Positions 936 through 17,790 of a stretch of DNA of 17,790 nt are shown piece after piece. This DNA comes from Oehlia diaphana (taxonomy: Eukaryota > Glomeromycota > Glomeromycetes > Glomerales > Glomeraceae). The stretch is from the NCBI GenBank assembly GCA_003833135.1, contig QZLH01000346.1:1-17790 (forward strand), given 5' to 3'. The number at the start of each line of letters is the position of its first letter. Within the stretch, counting starts at the first letter, position 1. Below the pieces are notes generated by a model, which saw nothing but the letters and a program-made list of their open reading frames with translations, did not search any database and was not told where the DNA came from. The position numbers and the translations under genes were made by a program.

Positions 936-1332
936 TTTTAAGTATTAATAAAGGTATATGTAGATCGCTAGACAAATATGAATGGCTTGGGTTAACTGGT
1001 TAAGCATAATTAATATATTATTATTTCAGTAATTGCAAAATTTAAGGTAAAATTTCGTAAGGAATTCATTGAAGTTTAAAAGTATTAGTTTTTTAAATAC
1101 GTTTATATCATTCACTAAATATCAGTGATCAAAACACGGAAATGAACAAAACTGTACATTCAACGAATATAATGGTTAGAACTAAACAGAAATTTAAATG
1201 AACCAACAAAAGGGAACAAAGCTATTGCAGAATGCATACTCAAATATTTTATGCGTGTTAAGCATATAATGTAAATTACTCAAAGAAAATTATTGAATAT
1301 TTAACAAAATTAATTTTTATTATTTATAAAAA

Positions 1333-2580
1333 CTATCTAGAAGGTTTATTTAATGAAGCCAAAATTAATTCTAATTTAGAATTCTGTGCTTCCTGCATAG
1401 CTTCAAGCTTAGAATCTATGGAAGATTTAACTAAATGAATTTCAGATTGAAGATAAGATTTAAGATCTATTTTAAGAGTATTGACTTTAGCTTCAATTAA
1501 AGACTCAATTTGAGTTTGAGCCTGCATGACCTCAAGAATTTGAGCAGTTTGTAACATGCTATTTTGTTTGCATTGAGGAATAGGTTTTGAAGAAGTTTCA
1601 GGACCAAGTTGTCGCAGGAAGGTTGTGCCATCTTCCAGCAGTTTGTCTAAGGCTTTTAGGTAGGCATCTTTCATATAGGTTGAAAATGCCTGTGGTTCTA
1701 ACATCTTGGAATGATTCTTTCGCAATGCTTGAATACAAGAATTGTAGACTTCTTCTTCGATGACTTGAATGCGCCTTTCCTGATTCACCAGTAGCCGTTT
1801 TAACAGTTTGAAAAATCCTATATGCAAACCTTGATCTTGATAGGTTTCTTCACCATTCCAATTCCCTGGGACGTATAAAGAAGGCTCATAGATGCAAACG
1901 GTGGTTGATTTTACAATGAATGCCGGAAAACATTGCTGAAATGTTCCATTGAGTAAAACTGGAATGATACCATGATCTTCTTGCTTGTAATCATACCGAA
2001 TATGCAAAAAGGCCAGTTCTGTTAACACATGGTGAAACTCCTTTTCCTTCAGATTGTGATTAACGACCTCACGTAATGCCTCCTTGATACTATCGATCCC
2101 ATCAAATTGTTTTAAAGCTTTTTGATAGGCACTTTTGAGTGATTGATAATAACTCTGGTAATATGAAGTTTCTATATAGCGTCCCAGTACTTCCGAACCA
2201 CATAAAATAACTTTGTCTACAGACTCTGAGTGATTTGGCAATAAACAAAGCTGACTGGACAGTACGTCATCAGCCTTGGCTGTATTCATTAAAGTGGTCT
2301 GAAACGCTAAAGTATTATATCCGCTTACCGTACAGTCAGAATAAATATGGAAACGTAAATTGGACAACCATTGAATCAAATTCCGGGAAACCCCAGCATC
2401 AGCTCGACCAACAGAGGGATTGTCATAGGCATATACCAGGAAAAGGCTGGGCGATTCTCGACACAGGTCCCAGTCCCGAAATCTTTCTAAGATTTCTTTA
2501 AAGAGACCAGCGACCAACTCGTGTTTTCTCTGTATTTGAGTTTTAGGCAGTTGAAAAGATGAGAAAGAGGTAGGGGGCAT
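1333..2580 (-). CDS. TIR/SEFIR-like domain protein, intronless, likely horizontally acquired
   Basis: This is an uninterrupted 415-codon frame from ATG at 2580 to TAG at 1333. Residues about 45-82 have a TIR/SEFIR-type start: a hydrophobic strand (LFLVYAYDNP), an amphipathic helix with VSRNLIQWL, then a strand ending HIYSD. Residues 121-131 (VDKVILCGSEV) match the strand in which these domains carry xDxVIxxxS. Residues 204-219 (GIIPVLLNG, then FP) match the characteristic I-P-V-L strand. Residues about 255-320 are helical. Residues about 343-410 look like a coiled coil, perhaps for oligomerisation. Such domains act in self/non-self signalling or as NAD-consuming enzymes; the activity here is unknown. 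GC is about 43-52% on sampled lines, against about 13% just downstream, and there are no introns, which suggests acquisition from bacteria. AATAAA lies just after the stop. The coding call is secure; the domain call is moderately sure. Confidence 0.8.
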   Translation of the reverse strand: MPPTSFSSFQLPKTQIQRKHELVAGLFKEILERFRDWDLCRESPSLFLVYAYDNPSVGRADAGVSRNLIQWLSNLRFHIYSDCTVSGYNTLAFQTTLMNTAKADDVLSSQLCLLPNHSESVDKVILCGSEVLGRYIETSYYQSYYQSLKSAYQKALKQFDGIDSIKEALREVVNHNLKEKEFHHVLTELAFLHIRYDYKQEDHGIIPVLLNGTFQQCFPAFIVKSTTVCIYEPSLYVPGNWNGEETYQDQGLHIGFFKLLKRLLVNQERRIQVIEEEVYNSCIQALRKNHSKMLEPQAFSTYMKDAYLKALDKLLEDGTTFLRQLGPETSSKPIPQCKQNSMLQTAQILEVMQAQTQIESLIEAKVNTLKIDLKSYLQSEIHLVKSSIDSKLEAMQEAQNSKLELILASLNKPSR

Positions 2581-3180
2581 CTGAGATCTTGAACTTCCTT
2601 TAAATAGATTGGCTGATAATGAAAAGTAAACTCAAAGTTAAGCGTAAGAGGTTAGAGGAAGCTAAGTAGAAAGCAGTATGAATAAAGAAGGTTAAACATG
2701 ATCATTGTTAAAATAGTTACAAATAATTACTACTCGGTAATTTGGATAGGAGTTCTTTTACAGAAAAGGTAGAATTTCCAAACACACCTTGCTTAGATTC
2801 GCCTTGGAAACTTTTTTGATGTAAGAGTATTTTGTGAGTATTTTGTTAATAGGCTTATTATCCTACTGACAAAAGTTCATTTATTACACCGATACTTTAT
2901 ACCATTTTGATTATTATGAATACATATTTTGATTCAGCCTCAATGTATCAAATAAAATACAAAGTACACATTTTCTGAAAAAAAAAAAAAATTAGTATGA
3001 TAACATAAAAATAACAAAGAATTTTTTTTAATTCTATTATTTCTATAAATAACGTCATTCTTTTCCACATAATTGGAAATAAAAAAACGGAAGTTGTAAT
3101 AATGTGTATATACATATATTGATAATTGTATGGCTTGACAAAAGTGTGCATCATTTCGCGACCTATTTTAGGCGCATAAA

Positions 3181-3425
3181 TCTGCATGCATGTGCCTGAA
3201 TGCGGCTGGTGCGGCAGGTAACAGCAGGATATTACTTGCTTTGGAAAATTAAAATCACTTGAAACTTTTAGTATAGATTTACAATTAATTTATTTTACAA
3301 ATTTAGGAATTTACTATGGCAAACATTTCTATGCCAAAAGTCTGCTAGTTTCAGAAGGGGCCTGGAAGGTTCCCCGCTGTAGTTGCAATCAGGTGATTGT
3401 TACACAAGCAGATCAGCAATGAATT
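3181..3425. repeat. GC-richer island of unknown identity, possible interspersed repeat
   Basis: Two patches (about 3185-3240 and 3345-3425) have clearly more G+C than their surroundings. The second contains a small hairpin, GGGGCC with GGTTCCCC around 3356-3375. The region 3317-3337 has TGGCA and TGCCA as a possible 5-bp stem. Neither strand gives a long open frame or a recognisable domain. It could be a SINE-like element, a non-coding RNA or a decayed gene. Confidence 0.3.
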
Positions 3426-3731
3426 TAGAATTTTTTAGAAAAATAAAAATTGAATTTGATAATTAAAAATAAATTTAGATAAATTTCCAAACTTTTGGGT
3501 GATATTGGGCTGAGGATAATTTCATTTTCATCACAATACTTTGAATATTTATACAAAAATTTTTTAATACAGAAAGCTGGAATAAAAAATCATAAATTGG
3601 TTAATAGGTTATTTAATTTGAACTGATCTGAGTGATCTCAACCTTAAGTAGACGCAGTAGGCACTTTGAATTTTCAATACAGTATTTTATACATGAAGAT
3701 TTCAATTACCGGTTATTGAATAGGGATTATA

Positions 3732-3764
3732 TAATATCACCAAACTGCGAAAAAGGTGATATTA
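3732..3764. repeat. Perfect hairpin, 10-bp stem
   Basis: TAATATCACC (3732-3741) and GGTGATATTA (3755-3764) are exact reverse complements separated by 13 nt. No gene ends nearby, so a terminator role is not supported. Confidence 0.6.
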
Positions 3765-4609
3765 ATTCTAAAAATTCGTCTTTAATTTTATCTTTAATTT
3801 GTTAATTCATTCATTATTCATCTGCAATTTATATTCGTCCAAAAATTGTTTAAAATTTGACTCCTGTATATATTTCATTTAGATACTCTAAAGATAAAAA
3901 TTCTGCCTTGTATACTAATTGATTTATAAATTAAACGAAATTTCTTGGGCTTAATTTTATTAATTTAACTTGCCAAAATAAATTATACTCCACGATAGTT
4001 CTTGAACATCTGTTTTAAAAAATTATTTTATAATATCAAGTTTATCAGCCGATCTACAAAAAATAATTATCTTGCGTTTTAATCTCCAAGTCGAATCATC
4101 TAGATAGAAACTGGATATTTTTTCAATTTATTCAATTTATCTGGATAATGTTTTTCATCCGGATCAAAGCATCAAATAAAATTCTATCAGCAATCCAATT
4201 TTTTTATTTTACTATAAAAATAATTTTGTATTCTTAGTAATGTAGACATGAAAACATGAAAAGAAGGCCATGAAATATGTTAAATAGAATTTTATTTGTC
4301 TATTTATTTATTTACTGAAATTAATGTTAAATAGGACTTTTTTTTTTGTATTTTATTATTTTTTTTATTTTTATTTAAATAAGTCTCTAGTATCGCCTAA
4401 AAAATCGAAACTATAGTGCCCGAATTACGAATGATAAATCACGTGAAAATTGGGACATTTGTGACACTAAAGTCTTAATTCTGGCCGGAATTATAAGCTT
4501 GGCAGAGTTACCGCCGATCACTGATTATTGTTTAAAAAATTTAATAATCAAATGATTTATATGTTAAATTTGTGATCATTGGAAATTTTCTGTCACAAAT
4601 TTAATGATG

Positions 4610-7217: not shown

Positions 7218-8826
7218 ATGAATCAATTGAATGAAAAAGAATTAAAATTCAAGAAGTGTATTCGATGCAAACAAGTAGATTCAGAAACACAATTTTGTGA
7301 GACGTGTATTTCAAAAAGTTGTGAGAAAAAATATGGAAGATGTTTTGAGTGCAAGCAAGTAAATACACAGAAGGAATGGTGTCAAATTTGTAATTCAAAA
7401 AGATTTCAACAAAATTTTGGTAATTGGACTAGTGGTAATGATGACATTGATAAGTTAATTCAAAATACTCAGTTAACAGCGAGAAATCGGTATCAAGTAT
7501 TAGAATGGATACCTTATGATAGATTTCATAATATTAAATATGTTGCAAAGGGAGGATTTGGTAAAGTATATAGTGCAATTTGGAAAGACGGCTTTATTTT
7601 ACTTTGGGATAAGTATAAAAATCAACTGCAAAGATATGCAAAAGTACAAGTAGCTCTTAAAAGTTTAAATGGATCACAAAATATTACATTGGAATTTATT
7701 AGTGAGGTACGATAATATAATTTAACTTATTAATAATTCTAATAATTTGATTATTTTTAATTTATTAATTTATTAACCAAATTTTTTTTTAAAAATAATT
7801 AGATTACATCATACCTTAAAATTCATGAAAATGAGTATATAAAAAATGTTATTAAATGTCATGGAATATCTCAAGATCCCATTACAAAGGAATATATTAT
7901 AGTTACGAATTATGCTAGAAATGGAAATTTACAAAGTGCTTTGAAATTGAATAGATATAAAATTTCTAATACGAATAAAAAAACTTTGTTTAAATTGTGG
8001 AGGAATAAACTCTATATTTTATTCGATATTTCAAGTGGACTTAAAGGAATTCATGGCAAAAATCTAATTCATCGAGATTTACATGTTGGAAATATAGTAT
8101 CTGACAAAATAAGCTGTATAACTGATATGGGATTGTGTAAACCGGCAAATTATGATGAATTAGAAGATAAGATGTATGGTGTTTTACCTTATATGGCTCC
8201 TGAAATTTTAAGAGGAGGAAATTATACCCAAGCTTCTGATATTTATAGTTTGGGTATAATTATGTATTTAATAATTTCAGGATTGCCTCCATATTATAAT
8301 GTTGCTCAGGATGAATTTTTAGCACTAAATATTTGTCAGGGATTAAGACCTAAATTCAATACCACCAAAGTACCTCAATTAATTGTGTACTTATTTAAAA
8401 GATGTTTAGATGCAAATCCATTAAACCGCCCAAGGGCAAAAGAATTAGCAAGGATTTTTCGTCAATGGATTAAAGAGATTAGAAATAAGAAAATTAAATC
8501 AGAATTAGTTGAACAAATTAAAGAACTTAATAATAGTTTATCAACTACTAGTAATCCACCTTTGACAAATAAAATAATATATTCTGAGGATACTTATAAA
8601 AGTAGACCACTTAAGTTTAATAATCTTCCCGAACCAAAGAATTCTGATGATTATTATGAATCAAGTGATGACATAATCAAATATTCAGGTATTAAACAAT
8701 TTAATTTAAAACAAATTTTTTATTTGTCAATTTATCATATTATTTATGTTAATTACTAATTCTTTTACAGAGTATTTTCTAAAATTCAGCAATGATGAAT
8801 GTTTTGAATGTGCAATTACTGATTAA
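7218..8826 (+). CDS. Kinase A: TKL-family protein kinase with tandem zinc-ribbon-like N-terminus (three exons)
   Basis: The predicted protein has 476 residues from join 7218-7706, 7803-8688, 8771-8826. The N-terminus holds two related four-cysteine units (C14, C17, C27, C30 and C42, C45, C55, C58), followed by WTSGN at 70-74. The kinase domain shows a glycine-rich loop GGFGKV (112-117), the beta-3 lysine in VALK (K148), HRDLHVGN (catalytic D255, N260), DMG in place of DFG (D271), APE (295-297), DIYSLG, and the subdomain XI arginine (R372). All key residues are present, so it is probably an active Ser/Thr or dual-specificity kinase. The first intron lies after GAG (E163), which the paralogues share. 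The last exon encodes YFLKFSNDECFECAITD, a cysteine-bearing tail that I recall from fungal members of this family. The start is the first ATG before the cysteine units. It lies convergent to kinase B. Target and pathway are unknown. Confidence 0.88.
7707..7802 (+). other. Kinase A intron 1 (phase 0, 96 bp)
   Basis: The donor GTACGA follows GAG and the acceptor ends AATTAG. Splicing joins LEFISE to ITSYLKIHENE in frame, whereas reading through meets a stop within three codons. The position matches introns in kinases B and C. Confidence 0.85.
8689..8770 (+). other. Kinase A intron 2 (82 bp)
   Basis: The donor GTATTA follows TATTCAG. A good branch-site word, TTACTAAT, lies about 12 nt before the acceptor TTTTACAG. 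Splicing replaces a hydrophobic read-through tail with a 17-residue tail that ends ECAITD. Confidence 0.8.
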
Positions 8827-9968: not shown

Positions 9969-11356
9969 CTATAATAAAATACTCGATATATTATCATAAT
10001 TTTCATAATAATCATCAGAATTTTTTGGTTCAGGAAGATTAATAAAATTAAGTAATTTACTTATATAAATATCTTTAGGGCGCAGCTCATTTGTTAAGTT
10101 AGTAGAAGTATTATTAATTTTTTCTGATTCCTCAATTTGTCTAATTAATTCCGTTTTAGTTGATTCTGTTTTGTCCCTATTATGTCGCTTAAATTCATCT
10201 AACCATTCAGTGAAAATTTTTGAAATATCCTTCATATTTGGTCGATTTAGTGGATTTGCATCTAAACACCTTTTAATTAAATGCAAAATTAATTGAGGTA
10301 CATTAATACTAAATCTCGGTCTTAACCCTTCACAAATCTTCAATGCTAAATATTCATTATGTTCAATTTCATAATATGGAGGTATTCCTGAAATTACTTC
10401 ATACATAATTATACCAAAACTATAAATGTCGGATTCTTTAGTGTAAGGTTGTCCCCTTAAAATTTCAGGAGCTACATAAGGTAATACACCATATATACTA
10501 TTATCAGTAATATTCAATTCCTTGTAATTTGCTGGTTTACATAATCCCACGTCAGTTATGTAAGCATTTTGTTTAAAGATTAATATATTTCCAATATGTA
10601 AATTTCGATGAAGTATTTCCTTTTCATGAATTTTCTTAAGTCCAATTACAATACATAGCAAGGCAATAATCCTACGTCTCAGTTTTAAATCATAAGGCTG
10701 GCTATTATATGGCGCTTTACGTTTAAAATAATTTTGTAATTTCCCAGCATACGCCAAAACTATAATATAATCTTTAGTGTCTGGATCTTGACTTATTCCA
10801 TAATATCCAATGTATTGATATGGTAGAAATAATTCAACATGTGGTATAATCTAAATTATTAAATAAATTACTGGTAAATTAACAAATAAAGATAAACATA
10901 AAAATTTTCACCATAATTAATTTATACCTCATTAATAAAATCCAATGTGATATTCTGTGAATTATTTAAACTTTTAAGAGCTACATGTTTATTTGAACCA
11001 CGCCTTTGCCAACTATTTTTACTCAGATCCCAATGTGATATATGTCCATCCTTCCAAATTGCGCTACATACTTTGCCAAACCCGCCTTTTGCAATATATT
11101 CAACTTTAGAAAATCTATCATAAGGTATCCACTCTAATAATTGAAATTTATTTTTTGCTGACAACTGACTGTTCTGAATAAATTTATCAACGTCATCATT
11201 GCCACTAGTCCAATTGTTAAAATTTTGTTGAAATCTTTTTGAATTACAAGCTTGACACCAAATCCGACCAGTATTTATTTGTTGACATTCTACGCACCAT
11301 CCATGTTTATTTTCTTCTACGTTTGATTGATTCATAATATGAATAGTATTAGTCAT
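9969..11356 (-). CDS. Kinase B: TKL-family paralogue, predicted pseudokinase (two exons)
   Basis: The predicted protein has 436 residues from exons 11356-10928 and 10850-9969. It is closely similar to kinase A from the cysteine unit onward but has only one four-cysteine unit (C21, C24, C34, C37), then WTSGN (49-53). It keeps the glycine loop GGFGKV (91-96), the beta-3 lysine (K128), DVG (D243) and APE (270-272). The catalytic loop, however, reads HRNLHIGN: the essential aspartate is asparagine (N226, codon 10602-10604). One transition from GAT to AAT explains this. It may bind ATP but is unlikely to phosphorylate, so it probably acts as a scaffold or allosteric partner. It stops at DNISSILL, without the ECAITD tail of kinase A. 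A second ATG (11335) begins MNQSN, similar to MNQLN in kinase A, and could be the real start. Confidence 0.85.
10851..10927 (-). other. Kinase B intron (phase 0, 77 bp)
   Basis: On the minus strand the donor GTATAA follows GAG (E143) and the acceptor is AATTTAG. Splicing joins LDFINE to IIPHVELF and keeps the frame through GISQDPDTKDYIIV, which matches GISQDPITKEYIIV in kinase A. Confidence 0.85.
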
Positions 11357-16016: not shown

Positions 16017-17790
16017 TCAAATCAAACAATCATCCAAATTTTCACTTAATAACATTTTGTTCACTTTTACACTAGCTTGTGAATCTTCACTTTCAAGAAT
16101 TTCATTCAACTGTTTACTAGTAAAATCAAGTAAGCGACTTTTATAATATGCTTGTGGATGTGATTCATTAACAAGATTGTTATAATGTCGAATTGGTGCT
16201 TTTATAAATTCCATAATGCTGCTTTTTAATTCTTCATTAATTTCATTATCTTTAGGAAAGAAAATCCATTTTGTAATAGTTTCTAATACTTCTTTAGAAG
16301 ATGGTCTTTTTGATGAATCTTCATTCCAACATATTTTCATTAAATCTACATAACATTGTGGAGTATTTTCAATAATTTCAGGACGTTCACCTTTACAAAT
16401 ACTCAAACTAAGTTGAATATCTTGTGCTCTATTATTAAATGGTGGTACCCCGGATGTAAGTTCCCACATAATCATAGAAAAACTATATATATCACTAGCT
16501 GGCGTATAAGATTTGCCTCTTAAAACTTCAGGAGCCATAAATGGCATTACACCATAAATATCATACTTTCCCAAAAACGATTTTACAGGTTGACATAATC
16601 CTAAATCACTAATATAAATTTTATCCTTATTCGAATCATTATGATTTAAAATATTACCATCATGAAAATCACAATGAATAAGATTTTTTTCATGTATCTC
16701 ACTAAGTCCAGAAATAATTTCGTACAACATATATAATTTTTGATTCCAATTATATTTGACTATTCTTGTTAAATTTTCTCTTAAATTACCATTATTTGCG
16801 TAATCCATTACTACCATATATTTTGAAATATTTTGATCTTCTGTATCTTCTGTAAATCCATAAATAAGTATAATTTCAAATGAACTTAAAACACTTGTAT
16901 GATATTCCCACTATAAATAATAATAATAATTTATTAATATAAGTAAATTTTAATTTAAATTAAAAATAGAAAAAAAAATATACTATCATACTTCTTTTAA
17001 AAATTCATTTAAATTTTCATTTAAATTCTTGGGACATTTAAGAATTACTTCTTTATCTTTTTTATCATTATATAACCAAGTAGCTTTATATATAGTACCA
17101 AATCCTCCTTCATTAAGATATTTAACATCTTTAAATTTGTTATAAGGAATCCATCTTAATTTACTTTTAAGAATAAAATCATCTATAATTGTATTTCCAC
17201 TTTTCCCAAATCTACAAATTTAAATAATTAAAAAAATTATATTATAGAAATTATAGATTGTATTATAATTTACACAAAACAAATTATTACTTACTCTAAA
17301 ATATAAATAGGAATTTAATGTAATATAATATAGGTCTTAATTTTTGTATAAATACGTATAATAACCTATAATTTACAACTTACCAACTAAAATAACAGAT
17401 ATTTTACAAATGAAAGAATTCAGTTAACAAATAAATATTATATAAAATATATAATGATATTGATACTTACAAACTAGAATATAAAGAATTTTTTAATAAA
17501 GAAATTAGTTAGTTTAAATTTATATGTAAAAATTATAAGTAATAATAGAATTAAATAAATAACTAACTTACAATCTATTAAATAAAGAAATTAGTTAGTT
17601 TAAATTATATGTAAATATTATAACAATAAGTAATAATAGAATTAAATAAATAACTTACTCCCTATATTATTTAATATATTTTTAAATAAAAAAATTAGTT
17701 AGTTTAAATTATATGTAAACATTATAACAATAAGTAATAATAGAATTAAATAAATAACTTATGACTTACGATCTATAAAATAAAGAAATT
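16017..17790 (-). CDS. Kinase C: TKL-family protein kinase, 5' end beyond the window, with a microexon chain
   Basis: The minus-strand exons seen are 16910-16017, 17211-16992 and, further 5', 17295 (1 nt) and five 3-nt microexons at 17384-17386, 17471-17473, 17572-17574, 17659-17661 and 17770-17772. The large exons give FGKSGN, a linker, the glycine loop EGGFGTIY, the beta-3 lysine in VILK, and then WEYHTSVLSS onward. The catalytic loop is IHCDFHDGN: the aspartate is kept and the usual arginine is cysteine, a variant I recall in this fungal family. SDLG replaces DFG; APE and DIYSF follow. The tail ends ENLDDCLI. Catalysis is probably retained, without RD-type activation-loop control. The N-terminal cysteine region lies outside the window. 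The domain call is secure; the microexon structure is inferred from splice signals and the open frame. Confidence 0.8.
16911..16991 (-). other. Kinase C intron in the kinase domain (phase 0, 81 bp)
   Basis: The donor GTATGA follows GAA in NEFLKE, and the acceptor TTTATAG precedes TGGGAATATC (WEY). Its position after a glutamate matches the introns of kinases A and B, so it is ancestral to the family. Confidence 0.85.
17212..17790 (-). other. Array of consecutive introns separated by 1-3-nt microexons
   Basis: Read on the minus strand, every TAG acceptor is followed after 3 nt (once 1 nt) by a perfect GTAAGT donor. The introns run 17769-17662 (108 nt), 17658-17575 (84), 17571-17474 (98), 17470-17387 (84), 17383-17296 (88) and 17294-17212 (83), plus the 3' end of another at 17790-17773. 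The segments between them are ATC, GGA, ATT, TTT, TTG and A. The first three full introns carry the branch-site word ACTAACTAA. Joined to the next exon, the segments read x-R-N-F-F-E-F-G-K-S-G-N with all introns in the same phase. Without the 1-nt exon a TGA would form. Kinases A and B encode the matching NF...SGN stretch in one exon. Confidence 0.6.
17471..17790 (-). repeat. Tandem repeat whose unit is one microexon plus one intron
   Basis: Three and a part units share AAATTAGTTAGTTTAAATT and AATAATAGAATTAAATAAAT, and each ends in CTTAC (plus-strand view). Units run about 17471-17571, 17572-17658, 17659-17769, and the start of another at 17770. Lengths differ through an expansion next to the acceptor (for example 17663-17685). 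The repeat boundaries fall at splice junctions, so each duplication added a whole intron. The array continues past the window end. Confidence 0.75.

What the first reader, a model, noticed from the sequence alone, without database searches (positions are those of the whole stretch)
17212..17790. Cascade of at least six microexons (3,3,3,3,3,1 nt) in a kinase gene
Six perfect GTAAGT donors each follow a TAG acceptor by exactly 3 nt, or once 1 nt, in a row. Joining all six segments keeps the frame and produces N-F...S-G-N, the motif that the two paralogues in this window encode in a single exon. All introns fall in the same codon phase. Chains of single-codon exons are, to my knowledge, very unusual; a 1-nt exon is known from plants. 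It may be a spliceosomal oddity, a stepwise (recursive-like) splicing arrangement, or both.
Basis: partly seen in the sequence, partly recalled or inferred. Interest (0 to 1): 0.92.

Follow-up and report, generated by a model that had tools for sequence, protein, structure and literature searches.

The report
Kinase genes split codon by codon
In this fungus's genome dozens of kinase genes carry, in front of the kinase part, tandem rows of three-letter DNA segments, each set between its own intron signals; they are predicted to be spliced together one codon-length at a time into a highly variable protein head, an extreme gene layout that still has to be tested on RNA.

Summary
On the minus strand the window has five TAG-NNN-GTAAGT units and one TAG-A-GTAAGT unit before a kinase exon (5 seen, 0.09 expected). 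The row stops at an assembly gap. Of the 30 loci found with the kinase exon alone, 30 have such rows (305 units on the coding strand, 5 on the other); 6 of 6 distant members do too. One gene has 78 consecutive 3-nt units between a 5' exon and the kinase exon. Genome-wide, ATAG-NNN-GTAAGTTAT occurs 947 times, the 4-nt version 5 times. Joined in order, neighbouring triplets never form a stop in phase 1 (0 of 295; shuffles 10.2) but do at chance level if a unit is skipped (9 of 287). Triplets differ about four times more than their flanks, so the encoded head is hypervariable. A Sel1-repeat gene has a similar row. No transcript was available: splicing is inferred, and 17 of 120 listed deposited models use another frame. 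Best reading: genes split codon by codon, making a hypervariable, perhaps recognition-type kinase head.

The parts
17770..17772 (-). 3-nt exon ATC (first visible unit; the row continues into an assembly gap after 17790)
   Evidence: TAG|ATC|GTAAGT; gap
17659..17661 (-). 3-nt exon GGA
   Evidence: TAG|GGA|GTAAGT
17572..17574 (-). 3-nt exon ATT
   Evidence: TAG|ATT|GTAAGT
17471..17473 (-). 3-nt exon TTT
   Evidence: TAG|TTT|GTAAGT
17384..17386 (-). 3-nt exon TTG (this unit is conserved in many rows)
   Evidence: TAG|TTG|GTAAGT; identical in 70% of 61 cross-gene pairs at this index
17295..17295 (-). 1-nt exon A, completing the frame to the kinase exon
   Evidence: TTTTAG|A|GTAAGT; last exon is a single A in 30 and a single G in 1 of 36 parsed rows, and A in 6 of 6 distant members
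17495..17790 (-). tandem-repeat part of the row (intron plus codon units, period about 104)
16992..17211 (-). first ordinary kinase exon, ..A|TTT GGG AAA AGT GGA AAT.. (FGKSGNTIIDDFILKSKLRWIPYNKF..)
16017..16910 (-). second kinase exon, to the stop codon; protein kinase domain
   Evidence: (PF07714, E 1.6e-41)

Best explanation
The stretch is the 3' end of a tandem row of units, each a three-base segment between intron signals, and these segments are likely exons that the spliceosome joins in order, one codon-length each, to build the N-terminal head of a protein kinase. Shown by sequence: the units, their GT-AG signals, the three-base length, the phase of the flanking exons, and the absence of phase-1 stops only when direct neighbours are joined. 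Inferred: each intron (about 95 nt, strong GTAAGT donor, CTAAC/T-type branch point) is recognised as an intron, and removal runs from 5' to 3', so that every step leaves three more bases on the growing exon and no three-base exon ever has to be recognised alone. A codon would be made of the last base of one unit and the first two of the next. Because every unit adds exactly one codon-length in the same phase, the row can probably lengthen or shorten by unequal recombination between the similar introns without breaking the frame, while the codons themselves diversify. The hypervariable head in front of a conserved kinase perhaps serves recognition of a variable partner; that last step is a guess.
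For: Presence: 30 of 30 loci picked by the kinase exon alone have 3 or more units on the coding strand, 305 in all against 5 on the other strand; 6 of 6 distant members, 51-71% identical over the exon, have the row. Genome-wide 947 matches with 3-nt spacing (reversed-pattern control 12) against 5 with 4-nt spacing (control 19). Frame: the 5' exon ends in phase 1 in the five loci where I could read it (C268, C531, C411, C258, C587), and the kinase exon fits through the 1-nt exon. Phase-1 stops: 0 of 295 neighbours, shuffle mean 10.2, 0 of 1000 shuffles as low; skipping 1, 2, 3 or 4 units gives 9/287, 9/279, 13/271, 7/263, i.e. chance; phase 2 has 70 of 295. Phase-1 peptides begin AL..W[WFV] in 7 of 7 translated rows (first base assumed in two). 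Absolute synonymous codon fit is best in phase 1. Array donors are GTAAGT in 490 of 572, kinase-exon donors mostly GTATGA (21 of 26). CTAA[CT] near the 3' end in 212 of 308 introns against 29.8 in shuffles. Hypervariable codons: 123 disjoint unit pairs differ 0.37/0.23/0.39 per exon base against 0.076 in the flanks. Second family: the Sel1 gene fits phase 1 at both ends, and a 12-nt exon there is open only in phase 1.
Against: No RNA was available. Phase 0 is also nearly stop-free (0 of 477, 1 of 303). Measured against column shuffles, synonymous codon use is raised more in phase 0 (-0.31 against a null of -0.56) than in phase 1 (0.20 against 0.09), and phase-1 codons use many xGG codons that are rare in this genome. 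Of the 120 listed deposited homologues 17 end ..SK|FGKSGN, i.e. would use a 5-nt last exon AGTAA and phase 0; 9 end ..E|FGKSGN as the 1-nt exon predicts; 54 lack the exon start. A word-based search of 5.8 billion proteins with the phase-1 head of C268 gave 12 candidates, none with E<=1. The window gene's own 5' end is in an assembly gap. Some units have weak donors (GTAATT, GTACAT, one GC). Unit pairs were chosen for similar flanks, which lowers the flank rate; four ungapped intron triplets in the same pairs average about 0.11.
Confidence: 0.81

Rival explanations
1. The rows are spliced codon by codon, but read in phase 0 with a 5-nt last exon (AGTAA), giving an I/L/G/M-rich head.
For: 17 of 120 listed deposited models end ..SKFGKSGN, and seven of them (P0008, P0011, P0026, P0056, P0064, P0096, P0111) show what look like phase-0 row translations; unit triplets contain almost no stops (0 of 477, 1 of 303); codon use rises above its shuffle null more than in phase 1.
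Against: The 5' exons end in phase 1. Phase 0 has a TGA in C1216 and a stop in the Sel1 row. Phase 0 needs rare codons such as TTG, ATC, AAC and TTC. The neighbour-specific stop avoidance belongs to phase 1. By my reading model P0026 gets into phase 0 by reading the acidic exon one base out of frame (NLKNLK for EFEEFE).
Confidence: 0.1
2. The row is one long intron region with leftover tandem repeats; the protein starts in or near the kinase exon.
For: Many of the 120 deposited models read start inside the kinase exon (for example MDNFILEKKL); tandem repeats copy splice-like signals passively; no RNA was seen.
Against: Passive repeats would not be expected to keep the 3-nt spacing in distant members, to avoid stops only between neighbours in one phase, or to keep both ends in the same phase.
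Confidence: 0.06
3. Recursive splicing or stwintron-like removal: the segments are stepping stones and are not kept in the mRNA.
For: TAG and GTAAGT lie very close together, as in ratchet sites, and stepwise removal is likely in any case.
Against: True ratchet sites leave zero bases. Of the first 100 genome-wide matches listed, 4 have 0 nt and 70 have 3 nt. The three bases show coding constraint.
Confidence: 0.03

Closest known systems
Micro-exon genes (MEG) of Schistosoma mansoni (PMC10526429; abstract and passages seen)
   Same: Many very short exons, mostly multiples of three, so units can be gained or lost in frame; variable proteins.
   Different: Passages give 10 to 20 short exons, mostly 15 bp with a minimum of 6 bp (the abstract says 3), with introns of 0.1-5 kbp and secreted proteins. 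Here up to 78 exons of 3 nt, introns of about 95 nt that are similar tandem copies, in front of a kinase.
1-nt and other ultra-short plant microexons, e.g. APC11 and VPS55 (PMC8831610, 12 passages seen; PMC4674806, search listing only)
   Same: Single-nucleotide exons exist, and in VPS55 they have strong GTRAGT donors, as here.
   Different: The passages show a case of two adjacent microexons and conservation over land plants; the terms tandem and consecutive microexons do not occur in the main text.
Drosophila homothorax 3-bp micro-exon (PMC7392893, search listing with start of abstract only)
   Same: An exon of three bases.
   Different: One alternatively spliced exon.
hnwd WD40-repeat non-self recognition genes of Podospora (PMC1805685, 12 passages seen)
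   Same: Homogenised repeat units with a few strongly varying codons.
   Different: There the homogenised part is coding; here it is intron, and each unit holds one codon-length. Positive selection was tested there, not here.
Recursive splicing and stwintrons (recalled, not read)
   Same: Stepwise removal with acceptor and donor side by side.
   Different: Here three apparently coding bases remain at each step.

Membership tests
Protein kinase (PF07714) | Match above the curated cut-off | tested here: met
   142.8 bits against 23.1
Spliceosomal GT-AG introns | GT donor, AG acceptor, branch-point-like motif near the 3' end | tested here: met
   Sequence features only: donors GTAAGT in 490 of 572; CTAA[CT] in 212 of 308 introns against 29.8 shuffled; one GC donor
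Microexons | Exon of a few nt retained in mature mRNA | not testable with these tools
   Length is met; inclusion is only inferred from stop avoidance
Schistosoma-type micro-exon genes | Exons of about 6-81 bp with long introns, secreted product | tested here: not met
   Exons 3 nt, introns median 97 nt; secretion not tested
Recursive (ratchet) splice sites | Zero-length exon, AG directly followed by GT | tested here: not met
   3-nt spacing dominates
Introners | Near-identical introns dispersed in many unrelated genes | tested here: inconclusive
   Units were seen in tandem rows before one kinase family and, in diverged form, one Sel1 gene; most of the 947 places were not inspected
hnwd-like diversifying repeats | Homogenised unit with codons under positive selection | tested here: inconclusive
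   Exon differences 0.37/0.23/0.39 against flank 0.076; no dN/dS or population test; no Pfam match, so no WD40 domain, in the C268 head

The most novel reading that the evidence does not exclude
A gene architecture in which a whole protein region is written one codon per exon. The introns are the repeat unit and the recombination handle, and the codons are the hypervariable letters. Dozens of kinases in one genome would thus carry a head that can gain, lose or swap single amino acids without losing the frame: a codon-by-codon diversification system, read out by strictly ordered splicing of up to 78 three-base exons.
Probability: 0.6. Interest if true: 0.97.

Novelty: categorically new. Interest (0 to 1): 0.93.

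Why it matters
If the rows are spliced as predicted, a spliceosome handles dozens of consecutive three-base exons, which tests how small an exon can be and whether splicing there is strictly intron-defined and ordered. It would also show introns being used as the homogenised backbone of a diversity-generating repeat, with single codons as the variable part, in one of the expanded gene families of root-symbiotic fungi (kinases and Sel1-like genes are named as such in passages of PMC8647823). Gene prediction appears to have trouble with these genes: among the 120 deposited models read, many truncate the head, run into introns, or use another frame.

Tried and rejected
Phase 0 and phase 2 readings were tested and set aside; phase 0 is not fully excluded. 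Zero-length recursive sites were rejected. A contiguous, intronless copy of the head was sought in the genome: nearly all listed matches of the joined peptide cover only its kinase-exon part; a few weak ones extend further upstream, some through stops (best 150 of 1566 candidates scored). A deposited protein carrying the phase-1 head of C268 was not found. Alternative skipping of units was tested through stop avoidance; skipped junctions show none, which argues against frequent skipping. Chance 3-nt spacing occurs: C40:257485 is a lone match in what looks like a transporter gene. Literature: looked for microexons in Rhizophagus, tandem microexons, ultra-short exons and short exons in R. irregularis; some searches were for context. 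None of the listed papers describes such rows by title and start of abstract, but several lists were capped (15 of 90, 15 of 16, 10 of 572, 10 of 38, 8 of 12), and the library lacks most subscription journals and holds no bioRxiv preprints, so prior description cannot be excluded. In PMC10234402 (R. irregularis genome with long-read RNA) I saw 12 of 22 places found; none of those mentions such rows.

Unit edits before counting: in C268 one 6-nt exon was split as ATG plus donor GTAGTT, one unit AGA with donor GTACAT was inserted, and in C258 a first unit CTC was added. Entry base G was assumed for C149 and C1216 (C149 has a short ATG exon ending AAAG, seen by eye). C17 was left untranslated because its 5' part was not resolved. 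In one search one CTG unit without a GT donor was left out, and the row there is split by an assembly gap.

Full report
What is there. On the minus strand of the window, five TAG-NNN-GTAAGT units and one TAG-A-GTAAGT unit stand in front of a kinase exon. Five matches of the first pattern were seen against 0.09 expected, and 0 of 200 shuffles reach five. The ordinary kinase exons follow at 17211-16992 and 16910-16017 (PF07714). The row does not end at the window edge: the assembly has an N run directly after 17790, so the 5' part of this gene cannot be seen.

Genome context. The window is contig C345 of a 108.8-Mb assembly. The best listed relatives of the kinase are from Rhizophagus irregularis (82% identity), with others from R. 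diaphanus and R. clarus, so this is very probably a Rhizophagus-like arbuscular mycorrhizal fungus; no tool named the species. A DNA search with the row gave 326 matches (40 of 186 candidates scored), many of them directly upstream of paralogous kinase exons and some extending over several kilobases.

How widespread. Searching with the kinase exon alone, without the row, gave 30 loci held for inspection; all 30 have at least 3 units upstream on the coding strand, 305 units in all against 5 on the other strand. Six more distant members that I picked, 51-71% identical over the exon, all have the row. Genome-wide the strict pattern ATAG-NNN-GTAAGTTAT occurs 947 times against 12 for the reversed pattern, and the 4-nt version 5 times. 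Of the first 100 listed matches with any spacing of 0-12 nt, 70 have exactly 3. As 228 of 480 parsed units match the strict pattern, about 2000 such exons can be extrapolated; that is an estimate, and most places were not inspected.

Parsing. I parsed 36 loci (the 30 above and others found by the row itself, duplicates merged, plus C268) with splice-site weight matrices and no length penalty from 1 to 30 nt. This gave 572 introns and 536 internal exons, of which 480 are exactly 3 nt and 33 are 1 nt. The last exon is a single A in 30 and a single G in 1 of the 36. Eight loci extended with further sequence gave 300 exons of 3 nt, 7 of 1 nt and 1 of 6 nt; the largest row, on C268, has 78 units after two documented edits.

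Is it translated, and how? Five loci show the end of the 5' exon, and all five end in phase 1. With 3-nt units and the 1-nt exon the frame then fits the kinase exon. Stops: in phase 1, 0 of 295 neighbour pairs; in phase 2, 70 of 295; in phase 0, 1 of 303. The decisive control is order: shuffling units within rows gives 10.2 stops on average and none of 1000 shuffles gives 0, while junctions that skip one to four units have stops at the chance rate (9/287, 9/279, 13/271, 7/263). Rows contain duplicated segments, so pairs are not fully independent; counting distinct neighbour pairs in the first parse gives 1 of 226 against 10.0 expected, and that one is a missed unit with a GC donor. Selection therefore appears to see each unit joined to its direct neighbour, in phase 1 and mostly without skipping. 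Phase-1 heads start AL..W[WFV] in 7 of 7 translated rows (entry base assumed for two). Synonymous codon fit is +0.20 in phase 1, -0.31 in phase 0 and -0.28 in phase 2. Against this, the column-shuffle nulls are 0.09, -0.56 and -0.12, so phase 0 gains more over its null than phase 1 does; phase 1 uses many xGG codons that are rare in the genome; and phase 0 is also stop-poor.

Deposited models. Of 766 homologues at E<=1e-60, 120 were listed and read: 17 end ..SK|FGKSGN, which would need a 5-nt last exon AGTAA and phase 0; 9 end ..E|FGKSGN, as the 1-nt exon predicts, but appear to run into intron upstream; 11 start at the exon; 29 are other; 54 lack the exon start. I read these as prediction artefacts, because by my reading one phase-0 model (P0026) takes the acidic exon out of its frame; but they are a main point against my phase and only RNA can settle it. 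The phase-1 head of C268 itself matched no protein (12 candidates, none E<=1).

Variation. For 123 disjoint pairs of units with at least 86% identical flanks, the exon bases differ 0.37/0.23/0.39 (mean 0.33) and the flanks 0.076; four ungapped intron triplets in the same pairs differ 0.06-0.17 per base, about 0.11 on average. The exons thus differ three to four times more than the introns, with the caution that pairs were chosen for similar flanks; random unit pairs differ 0.67. Pairs with 97-98% identical flanks include complete triplet changes. The two last triplets (CTT, TTG) are more often conserved (64% of 28 and 70% of 61 pairs). I infer diversifying selection plus recombination between units, as described for Podospora hnwd WD40 repeats (PMC1805685, passages); neither was tested directly. 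Repeated blocks of units inside rows (C17, C587) fit unequal recombination.

Splicing. Array donors are GTAAGT in 490 of 572 cases, while kinase-exon donors of the same genes are mostly GTATGA (21 of 26). Branch-point-like CTAA[CT] occurs in 212 of 308 introns (29.8 shuffled). Exons of three bases can hardly be recognised as exons; strong introns removed in 5' to 3' order would avoid that problem. This order is inferred. Plant 1-nt exons in VPS55 also have strong GTRAGT donors (PMC8831610 passages).

A second family. On contig C66 a row with a different intron (74 of 100 aligned columns alike; alignment score 40 against at most 30.5 in 200 shuffles, so possibly related) stands before Sel1-repeat exons (PF08238). 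Its 5' exons and its 3' exon both fit phase 1, and a 12-nt exon there is open in phase 1 only. The row is interrupted by an assembly gap, and one unit has lost its GT donor.

Verdict. The interpretation as chained single-codon exons is supported by comparison, not yet by RNA. Function as a recognition head is a guess.

Noticed in passing
L077 (G000:C66:44000-50000), 1100-4410: Row of 3-nt units in front of Sel1-like-repeat exons, a second gene family with the same layout, partly in an assembly gap; one unit has lost its GT donor.
   Followed up: partly
L065 (G000:C268), intron of 255 nt within the row: One row intron carries an inserted foreign-looking stretch and is apparently still an intron.
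   Followed up: no
L076 (G000:C46:204300-208300), 1259-1939: Start of a further row (CTC TTG ATG ATT GGT ..) that runs into a gap, with a 2-nt GA unit; not near any kinase exon listed.
   Followed up: no
window 1333-2580, minus: 415-aa open frame (MPPTSFSSFQLPKTQIQ..); not identified.
   Followed up: no
window 7218-8759 (+) and about 9969-11340 (-): Two kinase genes of a different layout; the + strand one has a cysteine-rich N-terminal exon instead of a row.
   Followed up: no
deposited Rhizophagus proteins P0004, P0013, P0083, P0085, P0093: Models end ..LNLE|FGKSGN or similar, which looks like the intron before the 1-nt exon read through and then spliced at A|GTAAGT; P0083 and P0093 are from R. 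clarus, so the 1-nt exon is probably older than this species.
   Followed up: partly
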